Shown here: positions 24,441 to 62,681 of the stretch, in pieces
Layout of the letters: each line of letters starts with the position of its first letter
How positions within the stretch are numbered: position 1 is the stretch's first letter
From: Vibrio tarriae
Lineage (GTDB): Bacteria > Pseudomonadota > Gammaproteobacteria > Enterobacterales > Vibrionaceae
Length of the DNA stretch: 64,000 nucleotides
Direction: 5' to 3'
Assembly (NCBI RefSeq): GCF_002216685.1
Contig: NZ_CP022352.1
Span: 62,001 to 126,000 of the forward strand
Made by a program: the position numbers and the translations under genes
Notes under the pieces: model-generated
What the model saw: the letters and a program-made list of their open reading frames with translations, nothing else
What the model was told of the DNA's origin: nothing
Database searches by the model: none

Positions 24441-24853
24441 GTTTCGTAGCCCATTGTTTAGCAATAAGTTTTTAAACACATTTGCTAGAAAGTGATTTTA
24501 CGCAAATGCATCAAACAAACACACGTCCAACGCCAAAAGCTGTGAAGTTGGCTGCCAAAACTCAAAACGGTCAAGGTTAAGTTGGCCACTTACCGAATCA
24601 ACGACAAAGAAAGCACGCTCACAGCAATGATGCCGCTTTTGTGAAACCAAACTTGCAGTGTGGAACATCCAACAACGTTGAAGCATCGAGGCTTGTTAGT
24701 TTTCAGCAACTTTGAAACTGCTGAACTTCCAACACTTTCTACCGAATCAGCATCAGACTTAAACCCAAAAGCCAAATTGTGCAGCTTGAACGATAAAGGC
24801 TGAATTTTCAGAATCTTGCGCGTGAATTTTTGATAATTTTTCCTGATAGAAAC
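24441..24853 (-). repeat. Recurring DUF645-like cassette c1
   Basis: First full copy of a ~410-bp cassette found 19 times in the window. On the minus strand a frame of 62 codons (24498-24686) starts MLQRCWMFHTASLVSQ and ends SQLLALDVCLFDAFA. Only the last ~30-45 codons of this frame are conserved between copies; the rest shifts frame by small indels. The ending resembles DUF645, a family I recall only from V. cholerae integrons. Whether it is translated is unclear. Near the left end lies the conserved TCGTAGCC(C/T)ATTGTTT block. Confidence 0.7.
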
Positions 24854-24976
24854 TAACGCCCGCCTAAGGGGCTGACAACGCATTACCACCAAATTCAAAC
24901 ACAACAACTGCAACCACCACGGCTCAATGGGACTGGAAACGCTACGCGTTGACAGTCCCTCTTGAGGCGTTTGTTA
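24854..24976 (-). repeat. VCR attC
   Basis: Closes recurring cassette c2; end repeats GTTAGCTTC/GAAGCTAAC. Confidence 0.97.
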
Positions 24977-25389
24977 GCTTCGTAGCCCATTGTTTACCAA
25001 TGACTTTTTAAACACATTTGCTTGAAATGCATTTTACGCAAAAGCATCACTCAAACACACGTCAAACGCCAAAAGCTGTGAAGTGAGCTGCCAAAACTTG
25101 CAGTGATCAAGGTTAAGTTGGCCACTTACTGCATTTCCGACAAAGAACGCGCGATTTCAGCGACGATGCTGCTTTTTGTGAAACCAAGCTGCCAGTGTTG
25201 AACATCCAACAACATTGAAGCATCGAGACTTGATGGTTTTCAGCGACTTTGAAACTGCTGAGCATTCAACACTTTCTACCAAGTCAGAATCCGACAAACT
25301 CGGAAGCCAACTTGTGCAATTTGAACGCTAAAAGCTTATTTTTCAGAACGATTGAGTTTGGATTTTGATGATTCCAGCCTTTAAGAAGC
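24977..25389 (-). repeat. Recurring DUF645-like cassette c2
   Basis: The conserved frame is open over its last ~42 codons (RAFFVGNAVSGQLNL... to FDVCLSDAFA) behind a TGA, with no obvious start codon. Very similar to c15 at 55310. Confidence 0.7.
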
Positions 25390-25512
25390 TAACGCCCGCC
25401 TAAGGGGCTGACAACGCATTACCACTGAACTCAAACATAACAGCCATAACCACCGCGGCTCAATGGGACTGGAAACGCCACGCGTTGACAGTCCCTCTTG
25501 AGGCGTTTGTTA
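25390..25512 (-). repeat. VCR attC
   Basis: Closes the HNH-like cassette; end repeats GTTATGTGC/GCACATAAC. Confidence 0.97.
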
Positions 25513-25525
25513 TGTGCGCACTAAA

Positions 25526-26389
25526 TTAGAGCTTGGAACTTAGAATAGCCCGACCTATAGGACTACTAACGAGATTTTCTGGTTGTTGTTTAGCAAGGTT
25601 GCTCTTAATGATGCTCTGCTGTTTATCACTAATATCTGTACGACTAGCAACCATTCTTCGAGCGCCATCCAACATACGATGAAGAACATAATCGTTCAAT
25701 TCAATTGAACAAGGCTTGAGAACACCACTTTGATGATTAATACGTGAACTACGCCAACCTTTTTGAGTTTTTGTATAAACTGGGCAAAGAACCAAAAACT
25801 TGAGGAACTTAATGTATACGAATATTACAATATCACTTGCTACCACATCGTATTCAATTGCTCTAGTTGTATATAAATTAAACTCTGACTCTTTAATCCC
25901 ATTAATATAGCCTGAGCTTGAATGAGCTGTATCCAATAGAATCATATGCTGACGCTGTTCATTTGGGTGAGGAATTTCACCCAAGAGATAACGAGACAAA
26001 TTATTAAGAGCTTTGGGTACATATGAAATCAAACTATTTTCAATATAACTTAATCTATTTTCTACGTATGAAAGCTTCAAGCAGCGAAACGATAGTGAAG
26101 CTAAGAACTTTGATAAGTCTGAGTCATATGAAAATTCAGATTTCTCACCCTTCTCATAAGGGTAGAAAATATTGTTTGCAAACGAAGTTTCCCAACGACT
26201 AAATAAGTCTTCACATTCACCGCAAAGAAACGGCACTTTCTCACCATCTTGAACTATACGATTCGGGTTCACAACTGAGCGGATGTTACCAGTCGGTGAG
26301 CTCTTTTTTTGATAACGGAACAGGAACTTGGGCAAAATATGGCTAAGTTCTAGCTCTGCTTCACAACTACATAATGAACACTTACTCAT
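25526..26389 (-). CDS. HNH-like zinc-finger protein, possible defence nuclease
   Basis: A 287-residue protein whose N-terminus holds two CxxC pairs around a histidine: MSKCSLCSCEAELELSHILP and, at about residues 55-60, FLCGECEDLF. This is the metal-binding frame of HNH/ENDOVII-type nucleases. The remaining 220 residues are helical with a hydrophobic middle (DIVIFVYIKFLKFLVLCPVY) and are not recognisable to me. Similar HNH-headed proteins occur in phage-defence islands, so a defence role is plausible but inferred. Its cassette is complete. Confidence 0.6.
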   Translation of the reverse strand: MSKCSLCSCEAELELSHILPKFLFRYQKKSSPTGNIRSVVNPNRIVQDGEKVPFLCGECEDLFSRWETSFANNIFYPYEKGEKSEFSYDSDLSKFLASLSFRCLKLSYVENRLSYIENSLISYVPKALNNLSRYLLGEIPHPNEQRQHMILLDTAHSSSGYINGIKESEFNLYTTRAIEYDVVASDIVIFVYIKFLKFLVLCPVYTKTQKGWRSSRINHQSGVLKPCSIELNDYVLHRMLDGARRMVASRTDISDKQQSIIKSNLAKQQPENLVSSPIGRAILSSKL

Positions 26390-26408
26390 AATTCAGCCTC
26401 AAAGCACA

Positions 26409-26530
26409 TAACGCCCGCCTAAGGGGCTGGCAACGCATTATCACTAAACTCAAACACAACAACCATAACCACCGCGGCTCATTAGGACTGGAAACGCTAC
26501 GCGTTGACAGTCCCTTTGAGGCGTTTGTTA
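26409..26530 (-). repeat. VCR attC
   Basis: Closes recurring cassette c3; end repeats GTTAGCTTC/GAAGCTAAC. One base shorter than usual in CCCTTTGAGG. Confidence 0.97.
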
Positions 26531-26945
26531 GCTTCGTAGCCTATTGTTTACCAATGACCTTTTTAACACTTTTAGTTGAAAAGCATTTTACGAAAATGCA
26601 TCGGACAAGCACATGTCCAACGCCAAAAGCTGTGAAGTTGGCAACCAAAATTTAAAATGATCAAGGTTGAGTTGACCACGGTTAAGAGTCCGCGACAAAG
26701 AAAGCCAGATCACAGCGATGATGCAGCCTTTTGTGAAACCAGGCTTTGAGTGTTGAACATCCAACAACGTTGAAGCATCGAGGCTTGCTAGTTTTCAGCG
26801 ACTTTGAAATCACGGAACTTTCAACACTTTCTACCAAATATTCATCAGGCTAAAACACAGAACCAAATCGGGCAACTTGAACGCTAAAAGCTGCATGTTC
26901 AGCGCAACTAAGGTTAGATATTGATAATTTTCCGCTTCAAGAAGC
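26531..26945 (-). repeat. Recurring DUF645-like cassette c3
   Basis: Conserved frame intact: LSLSRTLNRGQLNL to LDMCLSDAFS. Confidence 0.7.
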
Positions 26946-27066
26946 TAACGCCCGCCTAAGGGGCTGACAACGCATAACACAAAACTCAAACACAACAACT
27001 GCAACCACCGCGGCTCATTGGGACTGGAAACACCACGCGTTGACAGTCCCTTTGAGGCGTTTGTTA
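26946..27066 (-). repeat. VCR attC
   Basis: Closes the small-membrane-protein cassette at 27096; end repeats GTTATGTGTTT/AAACACATAAC. Confidence 0.97.
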
Positions 27067-27095
27067 TGTGTTTGAACTCTAAGCTAAAGTTAGCC

Positions 27096-27353
27096 TCACC
27101 CAAACATGCTACGCGATATTTTATGACCCACTGCAAAGCAAACCACAGCAACACCTATGAAAACTAGGATTGAGAGTAAATATCCAACCGTCGCTGATAC
27201 GCCAAAGCCCCAAACAAACGAAAATACTAAACCTTGATATGCTTCGTATGGCCATTCAATTACTGGAAAGTGTGAACCGTCCATAACAGTAAAGATTAAA
27301 GCTGCCAATCCTAATAGTGATGCCACAATCCCAAATATGCTTGATCTATTCAT
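27096..27353 (-). CDS. Small two-helix membrane protein
   Basis: An 85-residue protein with an N-terminal helix (IFGIVASLLGLAALIFTVM), a short exposed loop (SHFPVIEWPYEAYQG) and a second long hydrophobic region ending in GHKISRSMFG. No family is recognised. The start ATG at 27353 is the first in the cassette with a leader of normal length. Confidence 0.65.
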   Translation of the reverse strand: MNRSSIFGIVASLLGLAALIFTVMDGSHFPVIEWPYEAYQGLVFSFVWGFGVSATVGYLLSILVFIGVAVVCFAVGHKISRSMFG

Positions 27354-27426
27354 GCTGAAAACTAAGTTGGAAACAAGTCTGCCAATTCTATGTGCTTGAT
27401 TCGATTGGGACTAGTTAAAAAACACA

Positions 27427-27548
27427 TAACGCCCGCCTAAGGGGCTGGCAACGCATACCACTAAACCCAAACACAACAACCGAAACCACCGCGGCTCAAT
27501 GGGACTGGAAACGCCGCGCGTTGACAGTCCCTCTTGAGGCGTTTGTTA
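27427..27548 (-). repeat. VCR attC
   Basis: Closes recurring cassette c4; end repeats GTTAGTTTC/GAAACTAAC. Confidence 0.97.
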
Positions 27549-27960
27549 GTTTCGTAGCCTATTGTTTTCCAATGACTTATTTAACAAATTTCTTTGAAAG
27601 CCATTTTACGTAAATGCATCAAACAAACACACGTCCAACACCAAAAGCTGTGAAGTTGGCAGCCAAAATTTAAAACGATCAAGGTTGAGTTGACCACGGT
27701 TAAGAGTCCGCGACAAAGAAAACCAGATCACTGCAATGATGCAGCCTTTATGAAGCCAAATCTTCCTCGTGGAACATCCAAGAATATTGAAGCTTCGAGG
27801 CTTGTTGGTTTTCAGCGACTTTGAACCAGCTGAATTTTCAACACATTCTACCAAATCAGCATCAGGCAAAACTCAAAAGCTAAATTGTGCAACTTGTACG
27901 CTTAAAGCTGATTTTTCAGAACGTTGAACCTGAGCTTTTGATGATTTTTTAGATAGAAAC
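27549..27960 (-). repeat. Recurring DUF645-like cassette c4
   Basis: Longest form of the frame: 87 codons at 27606-27869, from MPDADLVECVENSAGSKSLK through STRKIWLHKGC to LDVCLFDAFT, without interruption. Confidence 0.7.
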
Positions 27961-28083
27961 TAACGCCCGCCTAAGGGGCTGGCAACGCATAACCACTAAA
28001 CTCAAACACAACAACTGCAACCACCGCGGCTCAATGGGACTGGAAACGCCACGCGTTGACAGTCCCTCTTGAGGCGTTTGTTA
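27961..28083 (-). repeat. VCR attC
   Basis: Closes recurring cassette c5; end repeats GTTAGTTTC/GAAACTAAC. Confidence 0.97.
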
Positions 28084-28496
28084 GTTTCGTAGCCTATTGT
28101 TTAACAATGACTTTTTAAACTCATTTGCTTGAAAGTGATTTTACGTAAAAGCATCACGCAAACACACTTCCAACGCCAAAAGCTGTGAGGTTGGCTGCCA
28201 AAACTTAAAACGACCAAGGTTAGTTTGGCCACGGTTAAGAGTCCGCGACAAAGAAAACCAGATCACAGCGATGATGCTGCCTTTTGTGAAACCAAACTTT
28301 CCGTGTGGAACATCCGACAACATGAAGCATCGAGGTTTTTGAGCTTTCAGCGACTTTGAAATAATTGAACTTTCAACGCTTTCTACCAAATCAGTATCAA
28401 ACAAAACTCAAAAACCTAATTGTGCAACTTGAACGCTAAAAGCTGAATTTTCAGAACATTGTGCGTGAATTATTGATAATTTTTCCTGAGAGAAAC
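28084..28496 (-). repeat. Recurring DUF645-like cassette c5
   Basis: 87-codon frame at 28141-28404. Its middle reads VPHGKFGFTKGS, the same DNA that gives STRKVWFHKG in c13 and c18, because of small indels. Confidence 0.7.
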
Positions 28497-28618
28497 TAAC
28501 GCCCGCCTAAGGGGCTGGCAACGCATACCACTGAACTCAAACACAACAACCGAAACCACCGCTGCTCAATGGGACTGGAAACGCCGCGCGTTGACAGTCC
28601 CTCTTGAGGCGTTTGTTA
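28497..28618 (-). repeat. VCR attC
   Basis: Closes the 28641 cassette; end repeats GTTAGCCGTGC/GCACGGCTAAC. Confidence 0.97.
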
Positions 28619-28640
28619 GCCGTGCGAAACATTATCTAGA

Positions 28641-29006
28641 TTAGTCCGCCATGAATGACGCTTTACTATGCGCATCTGCGTCTGCTTGGCCTTGACAACT
28701 TTCACAATACGCACCGTCATTTTGATAATACGCAACCAAGTCATCGTCATCTAAGATATTGGGGCATTCTTGATGTTCTTCTTCAAATTCATGCGTATAG
28801 CCTGAGCATTGGACATCTTCGATCAAATGTCGGATTGATTTATCAAAGTGATACTTCTGACTTTCAGACAGAGCCTCATAACCATTTCGACAGGAAAACT
28901 CTGCTATTCCCATAATTACCCTTTCATCGGCACCGTTGCTACGAGCAGATTCTTCAAGAATAACTGGGCAATTATCAATAATTTCTTTTAATGCTTCTAA
29001 GTTCAT
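28641..29006 (-). CDS. Hypothetical acidic protein with a CESC motif
   Basis: A 121-residue protein starting MNLEALKEIIDNCPVILEES, with TAGGTAGGA in front of the ATG at 29006; the longer frame from 29042 lacks a ribosome-binding site. It is acidic, helical at the N-terminus, and has a cysteine- and histidine-containing C-terminal half (QCSGYTHEFEEEHQECPNIL, YCESCQGQADADAH) that could bind a metal. The protein family is not recognised. Confidence 0.65.
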   Translation of the reverse strand: MNLEALKEIIDNCPVILEESARSNGADERVIMGIAEFSCRNGYEALSESQKYHFDKSIRHLIEDVQCSGYTHEFEEEHQECPNILDDDDLVAYYQNDGAYCESCQGQADADAHSKASFMAD

Positions 29007-29052
29007 TTTTATCCTACCTATTACTTTTAACGTTGAATTCAAATAGCACGGC

Positions 29053-29174
29053 TAACGCCCGCCTAAGGGGCTGACAACGCATTACCACTAAACTCAAACA
29101 CAACAACGGTAACCACCGCGGCTCAATGGGACTGAAAACGCCACGCGTTGGCAGTCCCTTTGAGGCGTTTGTTA
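29053..29174 (-). repeat. VCR attC, AA/GG variant
   Basis: Closes the VOC cassette at 29186; end repeats GTTATAGC/GCTATAAC. Carries ACTGAAAACG with TTGGCAGT instead of ACTGGAAACG with TTGACAGT. Confidence 0.97.
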
Positions 29175-29185
29175 TAGCGGTGCTT

Positions 29186-29575
29186 TTAGTTACCCGTGGA
29201 CATATGATGTGTTGCACATAGCTTATTGCCTGCTGGATCTCGTAAATAAGCTAAATACATTTTTCTTTGTCCACTCGTTCTGATACCCGGAGGATCTTCA
29301 CAAGCAACACCACCATTTCCTAAACCGGCTGCATGCCATGCTTCTACTAACTCTGGACTACTAACTTTAAAACCAATTGTCATCCCATTACCATGCGTCG
29401 CAGGTTCACCATTCACTGGTTTCGTAATACCAAGTACACCGTCTTGGTTTATGTAGAGACAGCGGCCTTTAGCGTCAATAACACCCGCCGGATAACCTAA
29501 CACTGACAATATTGCATCATAGAAAACCTTTGACTTTTCAATGTCATTTGAGCCGATCATGATGTGACTAAACAT
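29186..29575 (-). CDS. VOC family protein
   Basis: A 129-residue protein from MFSHIMIGSNDIEKSKVFYD, the first beta-strand and helix of the vicinal-oxygen-chelate fold. KMYLAYLRDPAGNKLCATHH is the usual C-terminal metal-site strand. Such cassette proteins may be lyases or binding proteins for drugs or other small molecules; the ligand is unknown. The ATG at 29575 is preceded by AAAGGAACAAGT. Confidence 0.8.
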   Translation of the reverse strand: MFSHIMIGSNDIEKSKVFYDAILSVLGYPAGVIDAKGRCLYINQDGVLGITKPVNGEPATHGNGMTIGFKVSSPELVEAWHAAGLGNGGVACEDPPGIRTSGQRKMYLAYLRDPAGNKLCATHHMSTGN

Positions 29576-29659
29576 ACTTGTTCCTTTTGTTGAGCAAAGT
29601 CGGAATTTACTCTGAGGCATCGATTGAGCAATGTCTAGGTTGAAATGTGAGATAAGCTA

Positions 29660-29782
29660 TAACGCCCGCCTAAGGGGCTGGCAACGCATTACCACTAAAC
29701 TCAAACACAACAACCGTAACCACCGCGGCTCAATGGGACTGGAAACGCTACGCGTTGACAGTCCCTCTTGAGGCGTTTGTTA
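29660..29782 (-). repeat. VCR attC
   Basis: Closes nucleotidyltransferase cassette A; its TAA is the gene's stop. End repeats GTTATGGCGCAA/TTGCGCCATAAC. Confidence 0.97.
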
Positions 29783-30316: not shown

Positions 30317-30331
30317 TTTCACCTTGCGCCA

Positions 30332-30453
30332 TAACGCCCGCCTAAGGGGCTGGCAACGCATAACACTAGACTAAAACGCAACAACCGTAACCACTGCAGC
30401 TCAATAGGACTGGAAACGCCACGCGTTGACAGTCCCGCTTGAGGCGTTTGTTA
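30332..30453 (-). repeat. VCR attC
   Basis: Closes the ParDE cassette, whose genes run the other way; end repeats GTTATGCGC/GCGCATAAC. Confidence 0.97.
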
Positions 30454-30477
30454 TGCGCGCCTTGCCCAAAATGCCAT

Positions 30478-30507: not shown

Positions 30508-30523
30508 TTATGGAGATGGGCTC

Positions 30524-31620: not shown

Positions 31621-31640
31621 GAAGAACTCTCCATTTTGCC

Positions 31641-32116: not shown

Positions 32117-32238
32117 TAACGCCCGCCTAAGGGGCTGGCAACGCATAACACTAAACTCAAACACAACAACCAAAACCACCGCGGCTCATTGGGACTGGAA
32201 ACGCCACGCGTTGACAGTCCCTCTTGAGGCGTTTGTTA
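32117..32238 (-). repeat. VCR attC
   Basis: Closes recurring cassette c6; end repeats GTTAGCTTC/GAAGCTAAC. Confidence 0.97.
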
Positions 32239-32652
32239 GCTTCGTAGCCTATTGTTTAACAATGATTTTTTTAAACACATTTGCTTGAAAGGCATTTTAC
32301 GCAAAAGCATCATACAAACACACGTCCAACGCCAAAAGCTGTGAAGTTGGCTGCCAAAACTTAAAACGATCTAGGCTAAGTTGGCCACGGTTAAGAGTCC
32401 GCGACAAAGAAAACCAGATCACAGCGATGATGCAGCCTTTTGTGAAACCAAACTTGCCGTGTGGAACATTCAACAACCTTGAAGCATCGAGGCTTGTGGG
32501 TTTTCAGCGGCTTTGAACCTGCTGAACTTTCAACACTTTCTACCAAATCGGCATCAGAAACACTCGAAAGCCAAGTTGTGAAATTTGAATGCTAAAAGCT
32601 GAATTTTCACAACAAATGAGCTTGGATTTTGATGATTTTTGCTTCAAGAAGC
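32239..32652 (-). repeat. Recurring DUF645-like cassette c6
   Basis: Conserved frame intact: SRTLNRGQLSLDRFKFW to LDVCLYDAFA. Confidence 0.7.
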
Positions 32653-32774
32653 TAACGCCCGCCTAAGGGGCTGGCAACGCATAACACTAAACTCAAACAC
32701 AACAACCGTAACCACCGCGGCTCAATGGGACTGGAAACGCCACGCGTTGACAGTCCCTCTTGAGGCGTTTGTTA
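32653..32774 (-). repeat. VCR attC
   Basis: Closes the IS-interrupted GNAT cassette; end repeats GTTATGTTT/AAACATAAC, the second half lying on the other side of IS copy 3. Confidence 0.97.
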
Positions 32775-38478: not shown

Positions 38479-38600
38479 TAACGCCCGCCTAAGGGGCTGG
38501 CAACGCATAACACCAAACTCAAACACAACAACCGTAACCACCGCGGCTCAATGGGACTGGAAACGCCACGCGTTGACAGTCCCTCTTGAGGCGTTTGTTA
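38479..38600 (-). repeat. VCR attC
   Basis: Closes recurring cassette c8; end repeats GTTAGCTTC/GAAGCTAAC. Confidence 0.97.
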
Positions 38601-39013
38601 GCTTCGTAGCCTATTGTTTAGCAATGATTTTTTAACACATTTACTTGAAATGCATTTTACGCAAAAGCATCACTCAAACACACGTCCAGAGCCAAAAGCT
38701 GTGAAGTTGGCTGCCAAAACTCAAAACGGTCAAGGCTAAGTTAACCACGGTTAAGAGTCCGCGACAAAAAAAGCCAGATCACAGTGATGATGCAGCCTTT
38801 TGTGAAACTAAACTTTGAGTGTTGAACATCCAACAGCGTTGAAGCATCTAGGCTTGCTAGTTTTCAGCGACTTTGAAACCACTGAACTTTCAACACGCTC
38901 GACCAAATCGGCATCAGAAAATCTCGCAAGCCAAGTTGTCAAATTTGAACGCTAAAAGCTGAATTTTCACAGCAAATGAGCTTAGATTTTGATGGTTCTA
39001 GCCTTTAAGAAGC
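38601..39013 (-). repeat. Recurring DUF645-like cassette c8
   Basis: Conserved frame broken: the Gln of NRGQL is TAA (CGTGGTTAACTT). Confidence 0.7.
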
Positions 39014-39136
39014 TAACGCCCGCCTAAGGGGCTGGCAACGCACTACCACTAAACTCAAACACAATAACCGTAACCCCCGCGGCTCATTGGGACTGGAAAC
39101 GCTACGCGTTGACAGTCCCTCTTGAGGCGTTTGTTA
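39014..39136 (-). repeat. VCR attC
   Basis: Closes the GNAT cassette at 39134; end repeats GTTATGCGAT/ATCGCATAAC. Confidence 0.97.
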
Positions 39137-40141: not shown

Positions 40142-40264
40142 TAACGCCCGCCTAAGGGGCTGGCAACGCATGACAACCAAACTCAAACACAACAACCGAT
40201 ACCACCGCGGCTCAATGGGACTGGAAACGCCACGCGTTGACAGTCCCTCTTGAGGCGTTTGTTA
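40142..40264 (-). repeat. VCR attC
   Basis: Closes recurring cassette c9; end repeats GTTAGCTTC/GAAGCTAAC. Confidence 0.97.
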
Positions 40265-40679
40265 GCTTCGTAGCCTATTGTTTAGCAATGATTTTTCAAA
40301 CACATTTGCTTGAAAGTCATTTTACGCAAAAGCATCAAGCAAACACACATCCAGCGCCAAAAGCTGTGAAGTGAGCTGCCAAAACTCACAGCGTTCAAGG
40401 TTAAATTGGCCACTAACCGAATTTCCAACAAAGAAAGCACGATTTCAGCGACGATGCTGCCTTTTGTGAAATCAAGCTGACCGCATTGAACATCCAACAA
40501 CATTGAAGCATCGAAACTTGTTTGTTTTCAGCGCCTTTGAAATTGCTGAATTTTCGACGTTTTCTACCACGTAAATATTCGATTGAAACGCAAAGGCCGA
40601 TTCATGAACTTTCAAAATATGAGGCTGATTTTTCAAGAACATTGAACTCAAGATTTTGATGATTCTTACTTCAAGAAGC
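40265..40679 (-). repeat. Recurring DUF645-like cassette c9
   Basis: Conserved frame intact (AFFVGNSVSGQFNLERCEFW to LDVCLLDAFA). The longest ATG-started frame in this copy lies in another phase. Confidence 0.7.
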
Positions 40680-40799
40680 TAACGCCCAATTAAGGTGTGA
40701 AGCACGCTACCACGATACTTAATTTAGCCACCTTAAACACTGAACTAAACCCAAACCGAAAATGCCAAGCGTGCTGAATCACTCTTAAATTGTTTGTTA
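40680..40799 (-). repeat. attC of non-VCR type A
   Basis: Same type as 36443: CAATTAAGGTGTGAAGCACGC and GCGTGCTGAATCACTCTTAAATTG. The inner stem base differs in both arms in a matched way (CCACGC/GCGTGG there, GCACGC/GCGTGC here). Closes the DUF2806 cassette; end repeats GTTAGGCAA/TTGCCTAAC. Confidence 0.9.
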
Positions 40800-41674: not shown

Positions 41675-41796
41675 TAACGCCCGCCTAAGGGGCTGACAAC
41701 GCATACCACCAAACTCAAACACAACAACTGCAACCACCGCGGCTCATTGGGACTGGAAACGCCACGCGTTGACAGTCCCTCTTGAGGCGTTTGTTA
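41675..41796 (-). repeat. VCR attC
   Basis: Closes recurring cassette c10; end repeats GTTAGCTTC/GAAGCTAAC. Confidence 0.97.
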
Positions 41797-42213
41797 GCTT
41801 CGTAGCCTATTGTTTAGAAATGACTTTTTAACAAACTTGCTTGAAAGTCATTTTACGCAAATGCATCGAACAAACACACGTCCAGCGCCAAAAGCTGTGA
41901 AGTTGGCAGCCAAAACTTAAAACGATCAAGGTTAAGTTGACCACGGTTAAGAGTCCGCGACAAAGAAAACCAGATCACAGCGATGATGCAGCCTTTTGTG
42001 AAACCAAACTTTCCGTGTGGAACATCCAACAACATTGAAGCATCGAGATTTGTTAGCTTACGGCGGCTTTGAAACTGCTGAACGTTCAACGCTTTCTACC
42101 AAGTCAGCATTAAAGAAAAACAACAAAAAGCCAATTTGTGAAAGTTGACCGCTAAATGATGAGTTTTCAATGCAAATTAGCTTATATTTTGATGATTCTT
42201 GCCTTTAAGAAGC
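41797..42213 (-). repeat. Recurring DUF645-like cassette c10
   Basis: 78-codon frame at 41853-42089, ending SQLLALDVCLFDAFA, uninterrupted; the middle is in the VPHGKFGFTKG phase. Confidence 0.7.
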
Positions 42214-42336
42214 TAACGCCCGCCTAAGGGGCTGGCAACGCATTAACACTAAACTCAAACACAACAACCATAACCACCGCGGCTCATTGGGACTGGAAAC
42301 GCCACGCGTTGACAGTCCCTCTTGAGGCGTTTGTTA
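42214..42336 (-). repeat. VCR attC
   Basis: Closes the VOC cassette at 42345; end repeats GTTATGTGC/GCACATAAC. Confidence 0.97.
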
Positions 42337-43612: not shown

Positions 43613-43735
43613 TAACGCCCGCCTAAGGGGCTGACAACGCATTAACACTAAACTCAAACACAACAACCATAACCACCACGGCTCATTGGGACTGGAAACG
43701 CCGCGCGTTGACAGTCCCTCTTGAGGCGTTTGTTA
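43613..43735 (-). repeat. VCR attC
   Basis: Closes recurring cassette c11; end repeats GTTAGCTTC/GAAGCTAAC. Confidence 0.97.
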
Positions 43736-44149
43736 GCTTCGTAGCCTATTGTTTCACAATGACTTTTCAAACACATTTGCTTGAAAACGATTTTACGCAA
43801 ATGCATTAGACAAACACACGTCCAACATCAAAAGCTGTGACGTGAGCAGCCAAAACTTACAGCGTTCAAGGTTGAGTTGGCCACGGTTAAGAGTCCGCAA
43901 CAACGAAAGCCAGATCACAGCAATGATGCTGCCTTTTGTGAAACAAAACTTCCCGTGTGGAACATCCAAAAAAAGTGAAGCATCGAGGTTTGATGGTTTT
44001 CAGCGACTTTGAAACTGCTGAACTTTCACTCTTTCTACCAGATCAGCATCAAGCAATACTCAAAAACCAAATTGTGCAATTTGAACGCTAAAAGCTAATT
44101 TTTCACAACAAATGAGCTTAGATTTTGATGATTCTAGCCTTTAAGAAGC
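43736..44149 (-). repeat. Recurring DUF645-like cassette c11
   Basis: Conserved frame intact: LLRTLNRGQLNLERCKFW to LDVCLSNAFA. Confidence 0.7.
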
Positions 44150-44272
44150 TAACGCCCGCCTAAGGGGCTGACAACGCATTACCACTAAACTCAAACACAA
44201 CAACCGAAACCACCGCGGCTCAATGGGACTGGAAACGCTACGCGTTGACAGTCCCTCTTGAGGCGTTTGTTA
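44150..44272 (-). repeat. VCR attC
   Basis: Closes nucleotidyltransferase cassette B; end repeats GTTATGGCGCAA/TTGCGCCATAAC. Confidence 0.97.
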
Positions 44273-44821: not shown

Positions 44822-44944
44822 TAACGCCCGCCTAAGGGGCTGGCAACGCATTACCACCAAACTCAACCACAACAACTGCAACCACCGCGGCTCAATGGGA
44901 CTGGAAACGCCACGCGTTGACAGTCCCTCTTGAGGCGTTTGTTA
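44822..44944 (-). repeat. VCR attC
   Basis: Closes recurring cassette c12; end repeats GTTAGCTTC/GAAGCTAAC. Confidence 0.97.
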
Positions 44945-45357
44945 GCTTCGTAGCCCATTGTTTACCAATGACTTTTTAAACACATTTGCTTGAAATGTAT
45001 TTTACGCAAAAGCATCACCCAAACACACGTCCAACGCCAAAAGCTGTGACGTGAGCTGCCAAAACTTGCAGCGATCAAGGTTAAGTTGGCCACTTACCGC
45101 ATTTTCGACAAAGAAAGCGCGATTTCAGCGACGATGCTGCTTTTTGTGAAACCAAGTTGACCGAATTGAACATCCAACAACTTTGAAGCATCGAGACTTG
45201 TTGGCTTTCAGCGGCTTTGAAACTGCGGAACTTCCAGCACTTTCTACCAAAACAGCATCTAGCAAAATTCAAATGCCAAATTGTGCAATTTGAACACTAA
45301 AAGCTGATTTTTCAGAACAAGAAGTTTGGATTTTGATGATTTTAGCCTTTAAGAAGC
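44945..45357 (-). repeat. Recurring DUF645-like cassette c12
   Basis: Conserved frame intact over GQLNLDRCKFWQLTS to LDVCLGDAFA. The ATG-started frame at 45081-45272 is in a different phase and ends before this region. Confidence 0.7.
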
Positions 45358-45478
45358 TAACGCCGCGTTAAGTAGTGAGCAACGCTACCACCTACCTTAA
45401 ACTATTGTGCCGTAAACACTAAAGCCGATTAAAACCAAAAATACTACGCGTTGCGAATCTGCCTTAAACGCTTTGTTA
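45358..45478 (-). repeat. attC of non-VCR type B
   Basis: 121 bp: TAACGCCGCGTTAAGTAGTGAGCAACGC on one side and GCGTTGCGAATCTGCCTTAAACGCTTTGTTA on the other. Closes the SMI1/KNR4 cassette; end repeats GTTAGAACTA/TAGTTCTAAC. Confidence 0.9.
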
Positions 45479-48003: not shown

Positions 48004-48126
48004 TAACGCCCGCCTAAGGGGCTGGCAACGCATTATCACTAAACCCAAACACAACAACTGCAACCACCGCGGCTCATTAGGACTGGAAACGCCACGCGTT
48101 GACAGTCCCTCTTGAGGCGTTTGTTA
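48004..48126 (-). repeat. VCR attC
   Basis: Closes recurring cassette c13; end repeats GTTAGCTTC/GAAGCTAAC. Confidence 0.97.
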
Positions 48127-48537
48127 GCTTCGTAGCCTATTGTTTCAAAATGACTTTTAACCACTTTTGCTTGAAATGCATTTTACGCAAAAGCATCACA
48201 CAAACACACGTCCAGAGCCAAAAGCTGTGAAGTTGGCGGCCAAAACTCAAAAAGATCAAGGTTAAGTTGGCCACGGCTACGAGTCCGCGACAAAGAAAAA
48301 ACACTTTCAGCGATGATGTGGCCTTTGTGAAACCAAACTTTCCGAGTTGAGCATCCAACAACATTGAAGCATCGAGGTTTGATGGTTTTCAGCGACTTTG
48401 AAACCACTGAACTTTCAACATGTTCGACCAAATCCGCATCAGAAAACCCCGCAAGCCAAGTTGTGAGATTTGAATGCTAAAAACTGATTTTCACAACAAA
48501 TGAACTTAGATTTTGATGATTCTAGCCTTTAAGAAGC
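48127..48537 (-). repeat. Recurring DUF645-like cassette c13
   Basis: 82-codon frame at 48183-48431, uninterrupted, with the middle in the STRKVWFHKG phase and ending LDVCLCDAFA. Confidence 0.7.
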
Positions 48538-48660
48538 TAACGCCCGCCTAAGGGGCTGACAACGCATTACCACAAAACTCAATCACAACAACCGAAACCA
48601 CCGCGGCTCAATGGGACTGGAAACGCTACGCGTTGACAGTCCCTCTTGAGGCGTTTGTTA
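48538..48660 (-). repeat. VCR attC
   Basis: Closes the HD-domain cassette; end repeats GTTAGCTGTAT/ATACAGCTAAC. Confidence 0.97.
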
Positions 48661-51125: not shown

Positions 51126-51248
51126 TAACGCCCGCCTAAGGGGCTGGCAACGCATTACCACTAAACTCAAAAACAACAACTGCAACCACCGCGGCTCATT
51201 GGGACTGGAAACGCTACGCGTTGACAGTCCCTCTTGAGGCGTTTGTTA
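51126..51248 (-). repeat. VCR attC
   Basis: Closes recurring cassette c14; end repeats GTTAGTTTC/GAAACTAAC. Confidence 0.97.
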
Positions 51249-51651
51249 GTTTCGTAGCCCATTGTGTAACAATGATTTTTTAACACGTTTGCTTGAAAGT
51301 CATTTTATGCAAATGCATCACACAAACACACATCCAACGCCAAAGCTGTGAAGTTGGCTGCCAAAACTCAAATCGATCAAGGTTAAGTTGACCATGGTTA
51401 AGAGTCCGCGACAAAGAAAGCATAATTTCAGCGGTGATGAAGCCCTTTGTGAAACTAAGCTGACCGTGTGAACATCCGACAACATTGAAACTTCGAGGCT
51501 TGTTGGCTTTCAGCGACTTTGAAATAGCTGAACTTTCAACACTTTCTACTTCAGGCAAAACTCAAAAGCCAAATAGTGCGACTTGAACACTTAAGGCTGA
51601 CTTTTCAGAGGATTGAATCTGAGCTTTTGATGATTTTTTCTAGATAGAAAC
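51249..51651 (-). repeat. Recurring DUF645-like cassette c14
   Basis: Conserved frame broken by loss of one A in CGCCAAAGCTG (others have CGCCAAAAGCTG), which replaces the LALDVC ending by another phase. Confidence 0.7.
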
Positions 51652-51771
51652 TAACGCCCGCTTAAGGGGCAGCCAACGCCACGACCAACTTTCCGCATAA
51701 CAACGTAACCACAAAAACCAACGCATTATAAAAATGCCACGCGTTGGCTGTCCCTCTTGAAGCGTTTGTTA
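51652..51771 (-). repeat. attC of non-VCR type C
   Basis: 120 bp: TAACGCCCGCTTAAGGGGCAGCCAACGCCACGACC on one side and GCGTTGGCTGTCCCTCTTGAAGCGTTTGTTA on the other. It is closer to VCR than types A and B but has a distinct central part. Closes non-coding cassette n1; end repeats GTTATGCTTAA/TTAAGCATAAC. Confidence 0.85.
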
Positions 51772-55186: not shown

Positions 55187-55309
55187 TAACGCCCGCCTAA
55201 GGGGCTGACAACGCATTACCACCAAATTCAAACACAACAACTGCAACCACCGCGGCTCAATGGAACTGGAAACGCTACGCGTTGACAGTCCCTCTTGAGG
55301 CGTTTGTTA
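55187..55309 (-). repeat. VCR attC
   Basis: Closes recurring cassette c15; end repeats GTTAGCTTC/GAAGCTAAC. Confidence 0.97.
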
Positions 55310-55722
55310 GCTTCGTAGCCCATTGTTTACCAATGACTTTTTAAACACATTTGCTTGAAATGCATTTTACGCAAAAGCATCACTCAAACACACGTCCAAC
55401 GCCAAAAGCTGTGAAGTGAGCTGCCAAAACTTGCAGTGACCAAGGTTAAGTTGGCCACTTACTGCATTTCCGACAAAGAACGCGTGATTTCAGCGACGAT
55501 GCTGCTTTTTGTGAAACCAAGCTGCCAGTGTTGAACATCCAACAACATTGAAACATCGAGACTTGATGGTTTTCAGCGACTTTGAAACTGCTGAGCATTC
55601 AACACTTTCTACCAAGTCAGAATCCGACAAACTCGGAAGCCAACTTGTGCAATTTGAACGCTAAAAGCTTATTTTTCAGAACGATTGAGTTTGGATTTTG
55701 ATGATTCCAGCCTTTAAGAAGC
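55310..55722 (-). repeat. Recurring DUF645-like cassette c15
   Basis: Conserved frame intact over GQLNLGHCKFWQLTS to LDVCLSDAFA. Close relative of c2. Confidence 0.7.
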
Positions 55723-55844
55723 TAACGCCCGCCTAAGGGGCTGACAACGCATAACACAAAACTCAAACACAACAACCATAACCACCACGGCTCAATGGGA
55801 CTGGAAACGCCGCGCGTTGACAGTCCCTCTTGAGGCGTTTGTTA
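55723..55844 (-). repeat. VCR attC
   Basis: Closes non-coding cassette n2; end repeats GTTATGCTTAA/TTAAGCATAAC. Confidence 0.97.
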
Positions 55845-56358: not shown

Positions 56359-56480
56359 TAACGCCCGCCTAAGGGGCTGGCAACGCATAACACTAAACTC
56401 AAACGCAACAACTGAAACCACCGCGGCTCAATGGGACTGGAAACGCCACGCGTTGACAGTCCCGCTTGAGGCGTTTGTTA
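56359..56480 (-). repeat. VCR attC
   Basis: Closes recurring cassette c16; end repeats GTTAGCTTC/GAAGCTAAC. Confidence 0.97.
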
Positions 56481-56892
56481 GCTTCGTAGCCCATTGTTTA
56501 CCAATGATTTTTTAAACACATTTGCTTGAAATGCATTTTACGCAAAAGCATCAAGCAAACACACATCCAGCGCCAAAAGCTGTGAAGTGAGCTGTCAAAA
56601 CTTACAGCGTTCAAGGTTGAGTTGGCCACTTACCGAATTTCCGACAAAGAAAGCGCTATTTCAGCGACGATGCAGCCTTTTGTGAAACAAAGTTGACCGT
56701 GTTGAACATCCAACAACTTTGAAGCATTGAGACTTGTTGGCTTTCAGCGGCTTTGAAACTGCGGAACTTCCAACACTTTCTACCAAATCAGCATTTAGCA
56801 AAATTCAAATGCCAAATTGTGCAATTTGAACACTAAAAGCTGATTTTTCAGAACAAGAAGTTGGGATTTTATGATTTTAGCCTTTAAGAAGC
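56481..56892 (-). repeat. Recurring DUF645-like cassette c16
   Basis: Conserved frame broken: the Trp of CKFW is TGA (AAGTTTTGACAGCTC), as in c7. Confidence 0.7.
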
Positions 56893-57014
56893 TAACGCCC
56901 GCCTAAGGGGCTGGCAACGCATACCACAAAACTCAAACACAACAACTGCAACCACCGCGGCTCAATGGGACTGGAAACGCCGCGCGTTGACAGTCCCTCT
57001 TGAGGCGTTTGTTA
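56893..57014 (-). repeat. VCR attC
   Basis: Closes the 57012 cassette and supplies its stop; end repeats GTTATGTAC/GTACATAAC, the second half at 58677 beyond IS copy 4. Confidence 0.97.
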
Positions 57015-57453: not shown

Positions 57454-58305
57454 CTACCTACTTTCGTACTCAACTGGGCTGACATACCCCAACGCTGAGT
57501 GTCTTCTTCTGCGATTGTAAAATACCTCGATGTATTCGAAGATGCCCATCCGAGCTTCTTCAACAGTTTGATAGTCTTCTGCGTATATCAGTTCGACTTT
57601 CAGTCGACTGTAGAACGACTCCATCACCGCATTATCCCAACAGTTGCCCTGTCGACTCATGCTCGGTACACCTCCATGCTTGCGCATGAAGTCTTGATAT
57701 TTATAGGCCCTGTATTGTACACCTCGGTCCGAGTGAATAATGACTCCCTTAGGCGGCTTACGTGACTCGAACGCCATTTTTAGAGCATTGGTGATGAGCT
57801 CGACTGTCATCGTTGTTTCTAGCGACCAACCCACAATGCGTCTTGAATGCAAGTCCATCACTGTCGCCAAGAAGAGCCAACGACTCTTCACCCAGATATA
57901 CGTAATGTCCGTGACCCACTTCTGATTGGGTGTCTCTGATTCAAAGTCTCTTCGCAGTAAATTGTCGGCAACATTCGTCATAGCCGCTACATCCTTGCTG
58001 TATTTAAACCCTTTACCATTACGTGCCATGATACCTTTTTCCTTCATGATATCAGCCACATAGTTCACGCAGCAGGCATAGCCTGCTTCGTTTAGCTCTT
58101 CGGCTATGCGCACTGAACCGTAACGCGCCCGATATTGGGCAAAGGTACACATCACTAGCTGTTCAAAGCGCTCTCGCCGCTTTGAACGCTCACTCGGCGT
58201 ATGATGACACCATTTATAGTAACCGCCTCGACTCACTTCTAAGGTGCGGCACATTAAGCTAATCGAGTACTCGCCGGTGTAGCTTTCAATGAACTCGTAC
58301 TTCAC
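57454..58305 (-). CDS. IS3-family transposase OrfB (copy 4)
   Basis: Identical 283-residue protein to the copy at 22319. Confidence 0.95.
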   Translation of the reverse strand: MKYEFIESYTGEYSISLMCRTLEVSRGGYYKWCHHTPSERSKRRERFEQLVMCTFAQYRARYGSVRIAEELNEAGYACCVNYVADIMKEKGIMARNGKGFKYSKDVAAMTNVADNLLRRDFESETPNQKWVTDITYIWVKSRWLFLATVMDLHSRRIVGWSLETTMTVELITNALKMAFESRKPPKGVIIHSDRGVQYRAYKYQDFMRKHGGVPSMSRQGNCWDNAVMESFYSRLKVELIYAEDYQTVEEARMGIFEYIEVFYNRRRRHSALGYVSPVEYESR

Positions 58306-58610
58306 TCTTGCTGCTTCGCGAAGTACGCCGAGACCTTTTTTAGGAATTCCATTTCATCTTTGAGCCGCTTGTTCTCGCGCCTTAGCGCTCGAAGCTCTTC
58401 GGACTCTTTCTTCGAATAATCGACACCATCTAAGGTGTTAAACTGTTTATCAGATAGGCGTGTGAACTGGCGCTTCCAGTTCCGGATCTGCTGGGCACTG
58501 ATACCCAGCTCTTTAGCAACAGAGACGGCAGTTCGGCCGGGAAGGCTGGCCAGCCGAACTGCTTCTTTGCGAAACTCTTCGGTGTACGCTGGATTACGAT
58601 GTTTAGCCAT
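58302..58610 (-). CDS. IS3-family transposase OrfA (copy 4)
   Basis: Identical 102-residue protein to the copy at 22014. Confidence 0.95.
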   Translation of the reverse strand: MAKHRNPAYTEEFRKEAVRLASLPGRTAVSVAKELGISAQQIRNWKRQFTRLSDKQFNTLDGVDYSKKESEELRALRRENKRLKDEMEFLKKVSAYFAKQQE

Positions 58611-59210: not shown

Positions 59211-59333
59211 TAACGCCCGCCTAAGGGGCTGACAACGCATAACAACCAAACTCAAACACAACAACCGTAACCACCGCGGCTCAATGGGACTGGAAACGCC
59301 ACGCGTTGACAGTCCCTCTTGAGGCGTTTGTTA
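59211..59333 (-). repeat. VCR attC
   Basis: Closes recurring cassette c17; end repeats GTTAGTTTC/GAAACTAAC. Identical to the site at 62158. Confidence 0.97.
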
Positions 59334-59734
59334 GTTTCGTAGCCTATTGTTTAGCAATGATTTTTTAACACATTTACTTGAAAGTAATTTTACGCAAAAG
59401 CATCACGCAAGCACACGTCCAACGCCAAAAGCTGTGAAGTTGGCTGCCAAAACTTAAACCGTTCAGGCCGCTTAAGAGTCCGCTACAAAGAAAGCCAGAT
59501 CACAGCGATGATGCAGCTTTTTATGAAACAAAACTGATCAAGTTGAACGTCCGACAACATTGAAGCATCAAAACTTGTTGGTTATCAGCGATTTTGAAAC
59601 CGCTGAACGTTCAACGCGTTCTACCAAATCAGCATCAGGAAAAACCCAAAAGCCAAATTGTGCACTTTGAACGATAAAGGCTGAATTATCAGAACCTTGT
59701 GCGTGAATTTTTGATGATTTTTCCTGAGAGAAAC
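59334..59734 (-). repeat. Recurring DUF645-like cassette c17
   Basis: Shorter version: a 15-nt in-frame loss in the conserved part (RTLKRPERFKFW) and a TAG just upstream (TTGTAGCGGACT). The ending LDVCLRDAFA is kept. Identical to c19. Confidence 0.7.
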
Positions 59735-59856
59735 TAACGCCCGCCTAAGGGGCTGGCAACGCACACCACAAAACTCAAACACAGCAACCGAAACCACCAC
59801 AGCTCATTGGGACTGAAAACGCTACGCGTTGGCAGTCCCTCTTGAGGCGATTGTTA
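59735..59856 (-). repeat. VCR attC, AA/GG variant
   Basis: Closes recurring cassette c18; end repeats GTTAGTTTC/GAAACTAAC. Inverse-core side reads GAGGCGATTGTTA instead of GAGGCGTTTGTTA. Confidence 0.97.
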
Positions 59857-60269
59857 GTTTCGTAGCCTATTGTTTGCCAATGACTTTTTTAACACATTTG
59901 CTTGAAAGCCATTTTATGTAAATCCATCACACAAACACACGTCCAACGCCAAAAGCTGTGAAGTTGACTACCAAAATTTAAAACGATCAAGGTTGAGTTG
60001 ACCACGGTTAAGAGTCCGCGACAAAGAAAACCAGATCACAGCGATGATGCAGCCTTTATGAAACCAAACTTTCCGTGTGGAGCATCCAACAATATTGAAG
60101 CATCGAGGCTTGTTGGCTTTCAGCGACTTTGAAATAGCTGAACTTTCAACACTTTCTACCAAATCAGCATCAGGCAAAACTCAAAAGCCAAATAATTCGA
60201 CTTGAACGCTTAAAGCTGACTTTTCAGAACGTTAAACCTGAGCTTTTGATGATTTTTCTAGATAGAAAC
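59857..60269 (-). repeat. Recurring DUF645-like cassette c18
   Basis: 69-codon frame at 59968-60177 starts MPDADLVESVESSAISKSLK but ends early at RFKFW because the next codon is TAG. Confidence 0.7.
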
Positions 60270-60392
60270 TAACGCCCGCCTAAGGGGCTGACAACGCATT
60301 ACCACCAAACTCAAATACAACAACTGCAACCACCGCGGCTCAATGGGACTGGAAACGCCACGCGTTGACAGTCCCTCTTGAGGCGTTTGTTA
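60270..60392 (-). repeat. VCR attC
   Basis: Closes the DUF3800 cassette and supplies its stop; end repeats GTTAAGTGC/GCACTTAAC. Confidence 0.97.
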
Positions 60393-61181: not shown

Positions 61182-61215
61182 TTCACCTCCAATGTACCAA
61201 TGTTCTGAGAGCACT

Positions 61216-61337
61216 TAACGCCCGCCTAAGGGGCTGGCAACGCATACCACTAAACTCAAACACAACAACCGTAACCACCGCGGCTCTATGGGACTGGAAA
61301 CGCTACGCGTTGACAGTCCCTCTTGAGGCGTTTGTTA
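61216..61337 (-). repeat. VCR attC
   Basis: Closes the 61335 cassette and supplies its stop; end repeats GTTAGGGCT/AGCCCTAAC. Confidence 0.97.
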
Positions 61338-62141
61338 GGGCTTAGTTGAGTTGAATTCGATTCTCAAAGGAAGGTCCGTCATTGCATAGTGAATGAATTG
61401 CTGACCCAAAGCTGTAAGTTCATACCCTTCCTCATCATCAAAAGCTGATACAAGAGGTTTGGGACCATTTCCTTTGGGTCTACGTTGCGGAGTCTTAGCT
61501 ACAAAATTTCCGAAATAATCTGTTTCTCTGTATTGCCGAATAACTCCACCAGTACTTAAATCACGAATTAAAAGTTTATATAGATCTGCATCAGCAGAAT
61601 CTTCACGGACAGTGCCTTTGCCAATTTTATGCCAAATCTGCCCTCTCGTGATGCCATTACTGTTGTAAATAGCAGCTATTACTTGGAAGTGCATTTCTGA
61701 ATATTGATTAATCCAATCAATGAACATACGAATAACGTCATCACTTGAAACTGTACTACTTGCAGCATTAGCCAAAATATTTCTGATATATTCCCGCTTT
61801 TCTTCACTTTCCGCACAAGACCATTCTCTAAATGTTTTCTTGACTAATGACTGATATGAACGACTATCAACACGCTCAGAGATTGCTTGATCCTGCAAGT
61901 CTAAACGCGCCATTATTTCTACAATAGTTTCTTCTTTTTCTTTCAACTCATCTTCTAACATTTGGACCCAGTGCTGAAAGAATTTGTTTACTTTGTCTTG
62001 TTCATTTTCAGACCAAGCACCAGCTATCGCAGAGAAAACACCACCAACAAATGGAACAACTCCGCCCGCAGCTTGAAGAGCACCTCTAACAACTTTGCTT
62101 CCCTTCCCAGATTCTGGCATTTCATTTTCAACATCACTCAT
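61335..62141 (-). CDS. Hypothetical protein with N-terminal hydrophobic hairpin
   Basis: A 268-residue protein. The stretch VRGALQAAGGVVPFVGGVFS followed by AIAGAWSENEQDKVN at about residues 19-53 is glycine-rich and could insert in membranes. A coiled coil (QMLEDELKEKEETIVEIMAR) and an all-helical region (KKTFREWSCAESEEKREYIR, AAIYNSNGITRGQIWHKIGK) follow. I do not know the family by name, but the layout, a possible pore-forming head with a winged-helix-like C-terminal part, resembles effector proteins of defence systems. That is inference. Confidence 0.6.
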   Translation of the reverse strand: MSDVENEMPESGKGSKVVRGALQAAGGVVPFVGGVFSAIAGAWSENEQDKVNKFFQHWVQMLEDELKEKEETIVEIMARLDLQDQAISERVDSRSYQSLVKKTFREWSCAESEEKREYIRNILANAASSTVSSDDVIRMFIDWINQYSEMHFQVIAAIYNSNGITRGQIWHKIGKGTVREDSADADLYKLLIRDLSTGGVIRQYRETDYFGNFVAKTPQRRPKGNGPKPLVSAFDDEEGYELTALGQQFIHYAMTDLPLRIEFNSTKP

Positions 62142-62157
62142 ATTTCCTCCTGAGCCC

Positions 62158-62280
62158 TAACGCCCGCCTAAGGGGCTGACAACGCATAACAACCAAACTC
62201 AAACACAACAACCGTAACCACCGCGGCTCAATGGGACTGGAAACGCCACGCGTTGACAGTCCCTCTTGAGGCGTTTGTTA
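62158..62280 (-). repeat. VCR attC
   Basis: Closes recurring cassette c19; end repeats GTTAGTTTC/GAAACTAAC. Confidence 0.97.
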
Positions 62281-62681
62281 GTTTCGTAGCCTATTGTTTA
62301 GCAATGATTTTTTAACACATTTACTTGAAAGTAATTTTACGCAAAAGCATCACGCAAGCACACGTCCAACGCCAAAAGCTGTGAAGTTGGCTGCCAAAAC
62401 TTAAACCGTTCAGGCCGCTTAAGAGTCCGCTACAAAGAAAGCCAGATCACAGCGATGATGCAGCTTTTTATGAAACAAAACTGATCAAGTTGAACGTCCG
62501 ACAACATTGAAGCATCAAAACTTGTTGGTTATCAGCGATTTTGAAACCGCTGAACGTTCAACGCGTTCTACCAAATCAGCATCAGGAAAAACCCAAAAGC
62601 CAAATTGTGCACTTTGAACGATAAAGGCTGAATTATCAGAACCTTGTGCGTGAATTTTTGATGATTTTTCCTGAGAGAAAC
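62281..62681 (-). repeat. Recurring DUF645-like cassette c19
   Basis: Exact repeat of c17 at 59334 including the TAG and the 15-nt loss. Confidence 0.7.

What the first reader, a model, noticed from the sequence alone, without database searches (positions are those of the whole stretch)
24441..62681. A ~410-bp recurring cassette occurs 19 times, with two more decayed copies, and its coding status is unclear
The copies share both ends, TCGTAGCC(C/T)ATTGTTT near one side and AAAATCAGC/TTAGCGTTCAA blocks near the other, and make up about a third of the cassettes in the window. Seen: on the minus strand about 12 copies keep an open frame over GQLNLDRFKFW to LDVCLFDAFA, but c7, c8, c14, c16 and c18 have stops or a frameshift there, c17/c19 have a stop plus a 15-nt loss, and upstream of the last ~45 codons the phase changes between copies. 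This resembles DUF645 as I recall it. A cassette that spreads without a stable gene could be a structured RNA, a site-providing spacer, or a selfish cassette with a very short peptide. Its abundance in one array deserves an explanation.
Basis: partly seen in the sequence, partly recalled or inferred. Interest (0 to 1): 0.75.

Follow-up and report, generated by a model that had tools for sequence, protein, structure and literature searches.

The report
Often-broken, high-copy integron gene cassette
About a quarter of the gene cassettes in this Vibrio integron are copies of one small gene of unknown function (DUF645); about half of the copies examined are clearly broken, they swap pieces with each other, no conserved RNA fold was found, and lasting selection shows mainly on the gene's last few dozen bases and on the cassette ends used for movement.

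Summary
In detail: 19 full-length copies of a ~417-nt cassette lie in the window, 28 in the array, plus two fragments. It is Pfam DUF645, between VCR-type attC sites. I aligned 110 distinct copies, later 44 more. No conserved RNA structure was found on either strand. 80 of 154 copies are open over the last 46 codons; 8 of 154 have a start-initiated frame of 80 codons or more. Linkage falls with distance, so copies recombine. Conservation sits at the cassette ends, which pair in the excised circle (columns 5-417, r2 0.97), and in the last ~50 nt of the frame, in broken and open copies alike. In the last 30 codons old pairs of copies show a synonymous excess (40 of 93 changes), recent pairs do not (3 of 18). 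Best reading: an old cassette gene amplified by the integron, now a recombining pool in which most resident copies are relics (the last step is inferred). A nucleotide-level signal or a very short peptide in the tail is not excluded. Structured RNA is not supported.

The parts
24440..24856 (-). DUF645 cassette body, copy 1 (net -2 nt in the tail region; last 46 codons open)
24976..25392 (-). copy 2 (allele with a 1-nt shorter, diverged middle segment; tail open for 40 codons, only start is the tail TTG)
26530..26948 (-). copy 3 (last 46 codons open)
27548..27963 (-). copy 4 (one open frame, 87 codons from a TTG)
28083..28499 (-). copy 5 (one open frame, 87 codons from a TTG)
32238..32655 (-). 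copy 6 (tail open; 59 codons from a TTG)
32294..32344 (-). slow core (alignment columns 314-364) as it lies in copy 6, from TCACAGCTTTTGG to just past the stop codon
34791..35207 (-). copy 7 (in-frame stop)
38600..39016 (-). copy 8 (in-frame stop)
40264..40682 (-). copy 9 (shorter-middle allele)
41796..42216 (-). copy 10 (78 codons from a TTG; best DUF645 score)
43735..44152 (-). copy 11 (tail open)
44944..45360 (-). copy 12 (shorter-middle allele)
48126..48540 (-). copy 13 (open, 82 codons from a start)
51248..51654 (-). copy 14 (frameshift in the tail)
55309..55725 (-). copy 15 (shorter-middle allele)
56480..56895 (-). copy 16 (shorter-middle allele plus stop)
59333..59737 (-). copy 17 (net 12-nt loss and stop)
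59856..60272 (-). copy 18 (in-frame stop)
62280..62684 (-). copy 19 (same sequence as copy 17)
15916..16102 (-). fragment: 5' piece next to 3' piece of the cassette
17515..17628 (-). fragment: 3' piece only

Best explanation
This is an old integron cassette that carried a small protein gene (DUF645) and was amplified until it made up about a quarter of the array. Shown: the copies recombine with each other, so they evolve as a pool; about half are broken in the last 46 codons and few have a long frame with a start; no conserved RNA structure was found. Inferred: it was amplified through its attC site; most resident copies are relics that do nothing as individuals; lineages that last and spread are filtered over long times at two places, the cassette ends that build the attC stem in the excised circle (needed for movement) and the last ~30 codons (protein-level selection on the few working copies, passed to broken copies by exchange). 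What the protein does is unknown.
For: DUF645 match; cassette limits at attC sites. Breakage: 80 of 154 distinct copies open over the last 46 codons, 114 over 29 (by length), 148 over 15; 8 of 154 have a start-initiated frame of 80 codons or more, 32 an ATG-started frame of 50 or more, 0 an ATG-started frame of 80. A sense frame of at least half the body is found in 7 of 24 DUF645 cassettes (three compound ones left out) against 22 of 37 others of 330-500 nt. Recombination: mean r2 falls from 0.175 (under 10 nt) to 0.031 (200-300 nt), 0 of 200 permutations as steep, then 0.066 at 300-420 nt, where the paired ends lie; same trend in the 44 new copies. Column 417 has r2 0.97 with its stem partner column 5, 400 nt away, and 0.00 with column 407, 10 nt away. 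Age dependence, 72 of 77 independent pairs (5 lie below the lowest bin): core-to-neutral ratio 0.46, 0.62, 0.44, 0.24 from recent to old; changes in codons 272-358 S/N/stop 3/14/1, 12/20/2, 37/59/7, 40/48/5. Common variants in columns 272-313 in the tail frame: S 10 against 10.6 expected, N 15 against 33.3; the other two frames do not show this. Copies lie scattered (5 adjacent pairs, 6.4 expected).
Against: The core is slower than neutral even in the most recent pairs (6 against 13.1 expected, p 0.02), and in broken copies about as much as in open ones (one block, 330-343, is less slow on broken branches, 0.54 against 0.33), which plain relics would not show. Synonymous changes are depleted too in columns 314-361 (7 against 15.7 expected among common variants), and TCACAGCTT has no synonymous change on the tree of 110 copies, so protein-level selection is not the whole story. 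In the 110 copies alone S/N does not differ between rare and commoner variants (Fisher p 0.19 in columns 314-361 and 0.25 in 272-313, tail frame). The six-frame scan gives ratios as low elsewhere: 0.68 and 0.67 at 241-330 in frames with 4 and 2 stops, and 0.64, with the lowest p of the scan, in an antisense frame at 181-270, so single S/N values are noisy. Tree-based counts assume a tree that recombination violates.
Confidence: 0.52

Rival explanations
1. The last ~50 nt (columns 314-364) act as a nucleotide-level signal, a DNA site, a promoter element or an unstructured RNA segment, that copies keep whether or not the frame above it is intact.
For: Columns 314-325 have 0 changes against 11.5 expected in the 19 distinct copies of the shorter-middle allele, 16 of which have no start codon in frame above the tail TTG; similar slowness on branches of broken and open copies; depletion of synonymous common variants, 7 against 15.7; the 13-mer TCACAGCTTTTGG occurs 26 times in the genome, 26 of 26 in these cassettes.
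Against: Old changes in codons 272-358 have a synonymous excess (40 of 93), and in columns 314-361 the tail frame shows it (w 0.49) while the other two sense frames do not (0.85 and 1.17). No sigma-70-like site stands out from column shuffles on either strand.
Confidence: 0.22
2. A very short peptide (12 to 16 residues, from the TTG in the tail) is made from nearly every copy.
For: 148 of 154 copies keep at least 15 open codons before the stop; an in-frame stop is expected in 26% of copies if neutral and seen in 4 of 154. Synonymous excess also in copies with a broken upstream frame (w 0.31; 0.14 in the shorter-middle allele).
Against: No Shine-Dalgarno-like sequence stands before that TTG (read by eye). 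The same pattern follows if tails are exchanged between working and broken copies. The expected stop fraction ignores shared ancestry and the general slowness of the stretch.
Confidence: 0.12
3. An ordinary small functional gene, with a few dead duplicates.
For: Homologous proteins of about 59 to 98 residues in records named V. cholerae, V. mimicus, V. metoecus, V. vulnificus and Shewanella (120 of 1028 matches listed; sequences of 17 read).
Against: Only 8 of 154 copies have a start-initiated frame of 80 codons or more; dN/dS-like ratios of 0.7 to 1.2 over most of the frame; AlphaFold2 on a natural 98-residue member with 27 sequences: mean pLDDT 59.3, pTM 0.28, which is no proof against a fold.
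Confidence: 0.09
4. A structured non-coding RNA on either strand.
For: None beyond the high copy number; some linked complementary pairs exist (such as 11-42 and 230-292) but no more than chance gives.
Against: RNAalifold z-scores between -1.91 and 0.87 in all windows tried, 24 copies; linked pairs are not enriched for complementarity; no Rfam match in 24300-35300 at E up to 1 and only V_AS7, elsewhere, at gathering level in the whole window.
Confidence: 0.03

Closest known systems
DUF645 (PF04875)
   Same: Sequence family; matches far above the cut-off.
   Different: Pfam treats it as a protein family; here about half of the copies are broken in the last 46 codons, and conserved words upstream of the last ~30 codons do not stay in one frame.
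Highly paralogous non-coding cassettes of vibrio integrons (PMC1382264; passages and section 7 read)
   Same: Tens of copies in one array; gene conversion and selfish spread are proposed there.
   Different: Those were described as without protein matches and not pseudogenes; this one matches a protein family and looks like a decayed gene. Exchange between copies is tested here.
Gene-less promoter cassettes (PMC11014356; abstract, sections 20, 24, 27 and passages read)
   Same: Cassettes of similar size in Vibrio arrays, some derived from degenerate genes.
   Different: Promoter activity was measured there; here a sigma-70 scan gives nothing above chance. Whether any cassette tested there is a DUF645 copy I could not establish.

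Membership tests
DUF645 (PF04875) | profile match over the curated cut-off | tested here: met
   37 matches in the own genome, 36 over the cut-off, best 138.9 bits against 27; 5 of 5 window ORFs tested match
DUF645 (PF04875) | intact protein-coding gene | tested here: inconclusive
   met by a minority of copies only: 8 of 154 with a start-initiated frame of 80 codons or more, 32 of 154 with an ATG-started frame of 50 or more
Integron gene cassette | one unit between attC sites, attC at the 3' end | tested here: met
   VCR-type sites on both sides of 27 bodies, three of which are compound
Integron gene cassette | cassette ends complementary in the excised circle | tested here: met
   8-nt complement in 24 of 27, mean 7.5; 83 other cassettes mean 8.9; columns 5-417 C-G 96, T-A 57, C-A 1 of 154
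Structured non-coding RNA | covariation or unusually stable consensus fold | tested here: not met
Promoter cassette | promoter activity | not testable with these tools
   only a sequence scan was run, nothing above column shuffles
Non-coding paralogous cassette (PMC1382264 definition) | no ORF over 150 bp and no BLASTX match | tested here: not met
   DUF645 matches and ORFs up to 87 codons
Anti-phage defence | match in PADLOC-DB | tested here: not met
   0 families at E up to 1 for 3 proteins
Type I toxin-antitoxin | toxic peptide with antisense RNA | not tested
   needs expression data

The most novel reading that the evidence does not exclude
The cassette is a selfish unit that has shed its gene: what spreads and is kept is the attC-stem ends plus a ~50-nt tail that works as a nucleotide-level signal or a 12-16-residue peptide in nearly every copy, so that the annotated DUF645 'gene' is mostly a by-product.
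Probability: 0.22. Interest if true: 0.75.

Novelty: new member of a known kind. Interest (0 to 1): 0.42.

Why it matters
The most frequent cassette family found in this array, named in databases as a protein family, is broken in about half of the copies examined and recombines as a pool. [quoted passage not shown] this family looks like a large exception. It also offers, within one genome, a replicated system for asking what keeps cassettes in integrons.

Tried and rejected
Other-end pattern: joined wrongly, 0 hits. Structured RNA. Antisense coding: a low ratio (0.64) at 181-270 in one antisense frame; that frame is free of in-column stops in 128 of 154 copies but 65 of 154 have a net frameshift there; not pursued further. 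Sigma-70 promoter: best sense site mean 6.41 against a null maximum of 5.75, sd 1.09, from 40 shuffles of a quarter of the copies. Better attC as the reason for abundance: rejected for the own array, DUF645 ends are less complementary and the folded site weaker than in other cassettes (7.5 against 8.9 nt; energy with RNA parameters as a stand-in). Tandem clustering: none. Mutational cold spot: rare variants in the tail of the 154 copies reach 47 against 55.2 expected, but that comparison favours conserved columns, and in the 44 new copies alone they are depleted (26 against 49.4); I rest on the pairwise test. The singleton counts and the first pairwise run were set aside for the same reason and for small numbers; they pointed to near-neutral recent change. 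Short matches outside the family in four genomes are 25-36 nt and are not counted as the cassette. Literature: DUF645 appears in 4 papers, none on vibrio integrons by title (listing only); further searches are. A paper on a type I toxin-antitoxin cassette of this superintegron, recalled, was not found.
Full report
Setting. The window is part of a superintegron whose cassettes read on the minus strand. I infer V. cholerae or a very close relative from named homologues; the genome itself is unnamed. Paired attC motifs give 111 VCR-type sites in the window and its flanks. Of the 110 intervals between them, three with bodies over 2000 nt were left out; of the 107 bodies kept, 27 form the DUF645 family, 19 of them in the window. 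Three of the 27 are compound cassettes, of which only the last 425 nt were aligned. A profile from these finds 138 matches in the stretches then held, 120 full length and 110 distinct; 18 partial matches were set aside. In the own array 28 are full length, 27 distinct, mean pairwise identity 0.82.

Distribution. PF04875 is found in 10 of 247 Vibrionaceae genomes, own included, and in 4 of 394 of the order sample, own included; both calls score a capped number of candidates in each genome. A DNA search finds 19 of 227 genus genomes; four of these are matches of 25-36 nt that I do not count, leaving 15. Shares of VCR-type sites that go with the cassette, in the stretches fetched: 28 of 111 (own), 37 of 160 (G223), 27 of 125 (G173). 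Database proteins named DUF645 also come from Shewanella records.

Coding status. In the frame of the tail, 58 of 110 copies are open for 46 codons. From further genomes, 56 full-length copies were found, 12 already held, 44 new; with them the figures are 80 of 154 open over 46 codons, 114 over 29 by length and 148 over 15. Two common middle alleles differ by 1 nt in length, so upstream and downstream parts lie in different frames in different copies. ATG-started frames of 50 codons or more exist in 32 of 154, start-initiated frames of 80 or more in 8 of 154. Parsimony-based dN/dS-like ratios are 0.7 to 1.2 over most of the frame and 0.49 in columns 314-361 after leaving out the hypervariable codon 344-346. 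The six-frame scan shows equally low values elsewhere, among them frames with stops and one antisense stretch, so these ratios alone do not decide.

Slow blocks. Corrected for base mutability, the slowest separate 10-mers start at columns 409, 314, 1, 330, 227, 247, 210 and 355. On branches of broken copies they are about as slow as on those of open copies; 330-343 is somewhat less so. In the shorter-middle allele (19 distinct copies, 16 without a start in frame above the tail TTG) columns 314-325 have 0 changes against 11.5 expected, while 224-281 is only weakly slow.

Recombination. Mean r2 between biallelic sites falls from 0.175 under 10 nt to 0.031 at 200-300 nt and is 0.066 at 300-420 nt; the 44 new copies behave likewise. 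The rise at the far end fits the pairing of the two ends: columns 5 and 417 (C-G 96, T-A 57, C-A 1) lie in the attC stem of the excised circle, r2 0.97, while column 407 is unlinked to both. This shows exchange inside the cassette together with maintenance of the stem. That cassette ends match in the circle is established knowledge on integrons (recalled); other cassettes of the array do the same.

Time scale of selection. 77 independent closest pairs were taken among the 154 copies. They were chosen on half of the neutral columns and on columns 161-313; neutral change was measured on the other half, and the core (columns 314-364 without the variable ones) was not used for choosing, but codons 272-313 were. 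The core-to-neutral ratio is 0.46 (22 pairs), 0.62 (14), 0.44 (20) and 0.24 (16) from recent to old; 5 pairs fell below the lowest bin. Changes in codons 272-358 (hypervariable codon left out) are S/N/stop 3/14/1, 12/20/2, 37/59/7 and 40/48/5; about a quarter synonymous is expected without selection (26.3 of about 104 in the common-variant model). The synonymous share thus rises with age, as expected if nonsynonymous changes are removed slowly from the pool. In the oldest bin pairs of broken copies show it as well (15/13/3) and so do pairs of open copies (18/23/0). I read this as exchange with working copies or recent breakage; selection on the tail in broken copies is the alternative. By bin and class the ratios scatter (both broken 0.41, 0.19, 1.30, 0.31; both open 0.76, 1.07, 0.28, 0.23), on few pairs each.

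RNA. RNAalifold on 24 diverse copies, sliding windows, both strands, 60 shuffles each: z from -1.91 to 0.87. Linked pairs (r2 at least 0.4, 277 pairs) are complementary in 9.7%, all 19,246 pairs in 14.4%. Rfam: one gathering-level hit in the window, elsewhere; none at E up to 1 in 24300-35300, the only stretch searched at that level.

Controls. Other cassettes of 330-500 nt: 22 of 37 have a sense frame of at least half the body, DUF645 7 of 24. Other multi-copy groups in the array are at least 91% identical, DUF645 copies of the own array average 82%, so the DUF645 family looks older. The attC sites of DUF645 in the own array are not stronger than others.

Protein. For three proteins, no NCBIfam family over its cut-off and no PADLOC family; for one of them no PDB relative by sequence. 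AlphaFold2 on a natural 98-residue member: pLDDT 59.3, pTM 0.28, three predicted helices; no fold search was made.

Literature seen. PMC11014356: abstract, sections 20, 24, 27 and passages. PMC1382264: passages and section 7. PMC4032106: parts 1 and 2 of 3 of the text. PMC5963079: passages. The DUF645 search listed 4 papers, none on vibrio integrons by title. That I found nothing on DUF645 decay in print rests only, in an open-licence library.

Noticed in passing
29663-30334, 44153-44824; 35208-35826, 63644-64000; 62685-63643: Other multi-copy cassettes in the same array have no frame longer than about 47 codons on either strand: gene-less repeated cassettes with further copies outside the window.
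   Followed up: no
19191-20347, 22014-23170, 32916-34072, 57454-58610: A 102-codon plus 283-codon frame pair recurs four times; it looks like one insertion sequence, not tested.
   Followed up: no
13144-13312: Rfam V_AS7 antisense RNA on the minus strand, 186.7 bits.
   Followed up: no
L089, L090: The 3' non-coding part of the cassette (columns 375-410) matches at 92% and 89% over 36 nt a stretch in two other Vibrio genomes that reads like a LuxR-type gene (by eye); chance or a trace of origin.
   Followed up: partly
L093: A DUF645 copy with a large internal deletion that keeps both ends and part of the tail.
   Followed up: partly
alignment columns 344-346 (codon before DAFA): One codon is hypervariable (53 nonsynonymous, 14 synonymous, 1 stop change on the tree) between conserved neighbours.
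   Followed up: no
alignment columns 181-270, antisense: One antisense frame has the lowest p of the six-frame scan (ratio 0.64) and is free of in-column stops in 128 of 154 copies, though 65 have a net frameshift there.
   Followed up: partly
alignment columns 5, 407, 417: Column 417 is linked to column 5 (r2 0.97) across the attC junction but not to column 407 ten nt away.
   Followed up: yes
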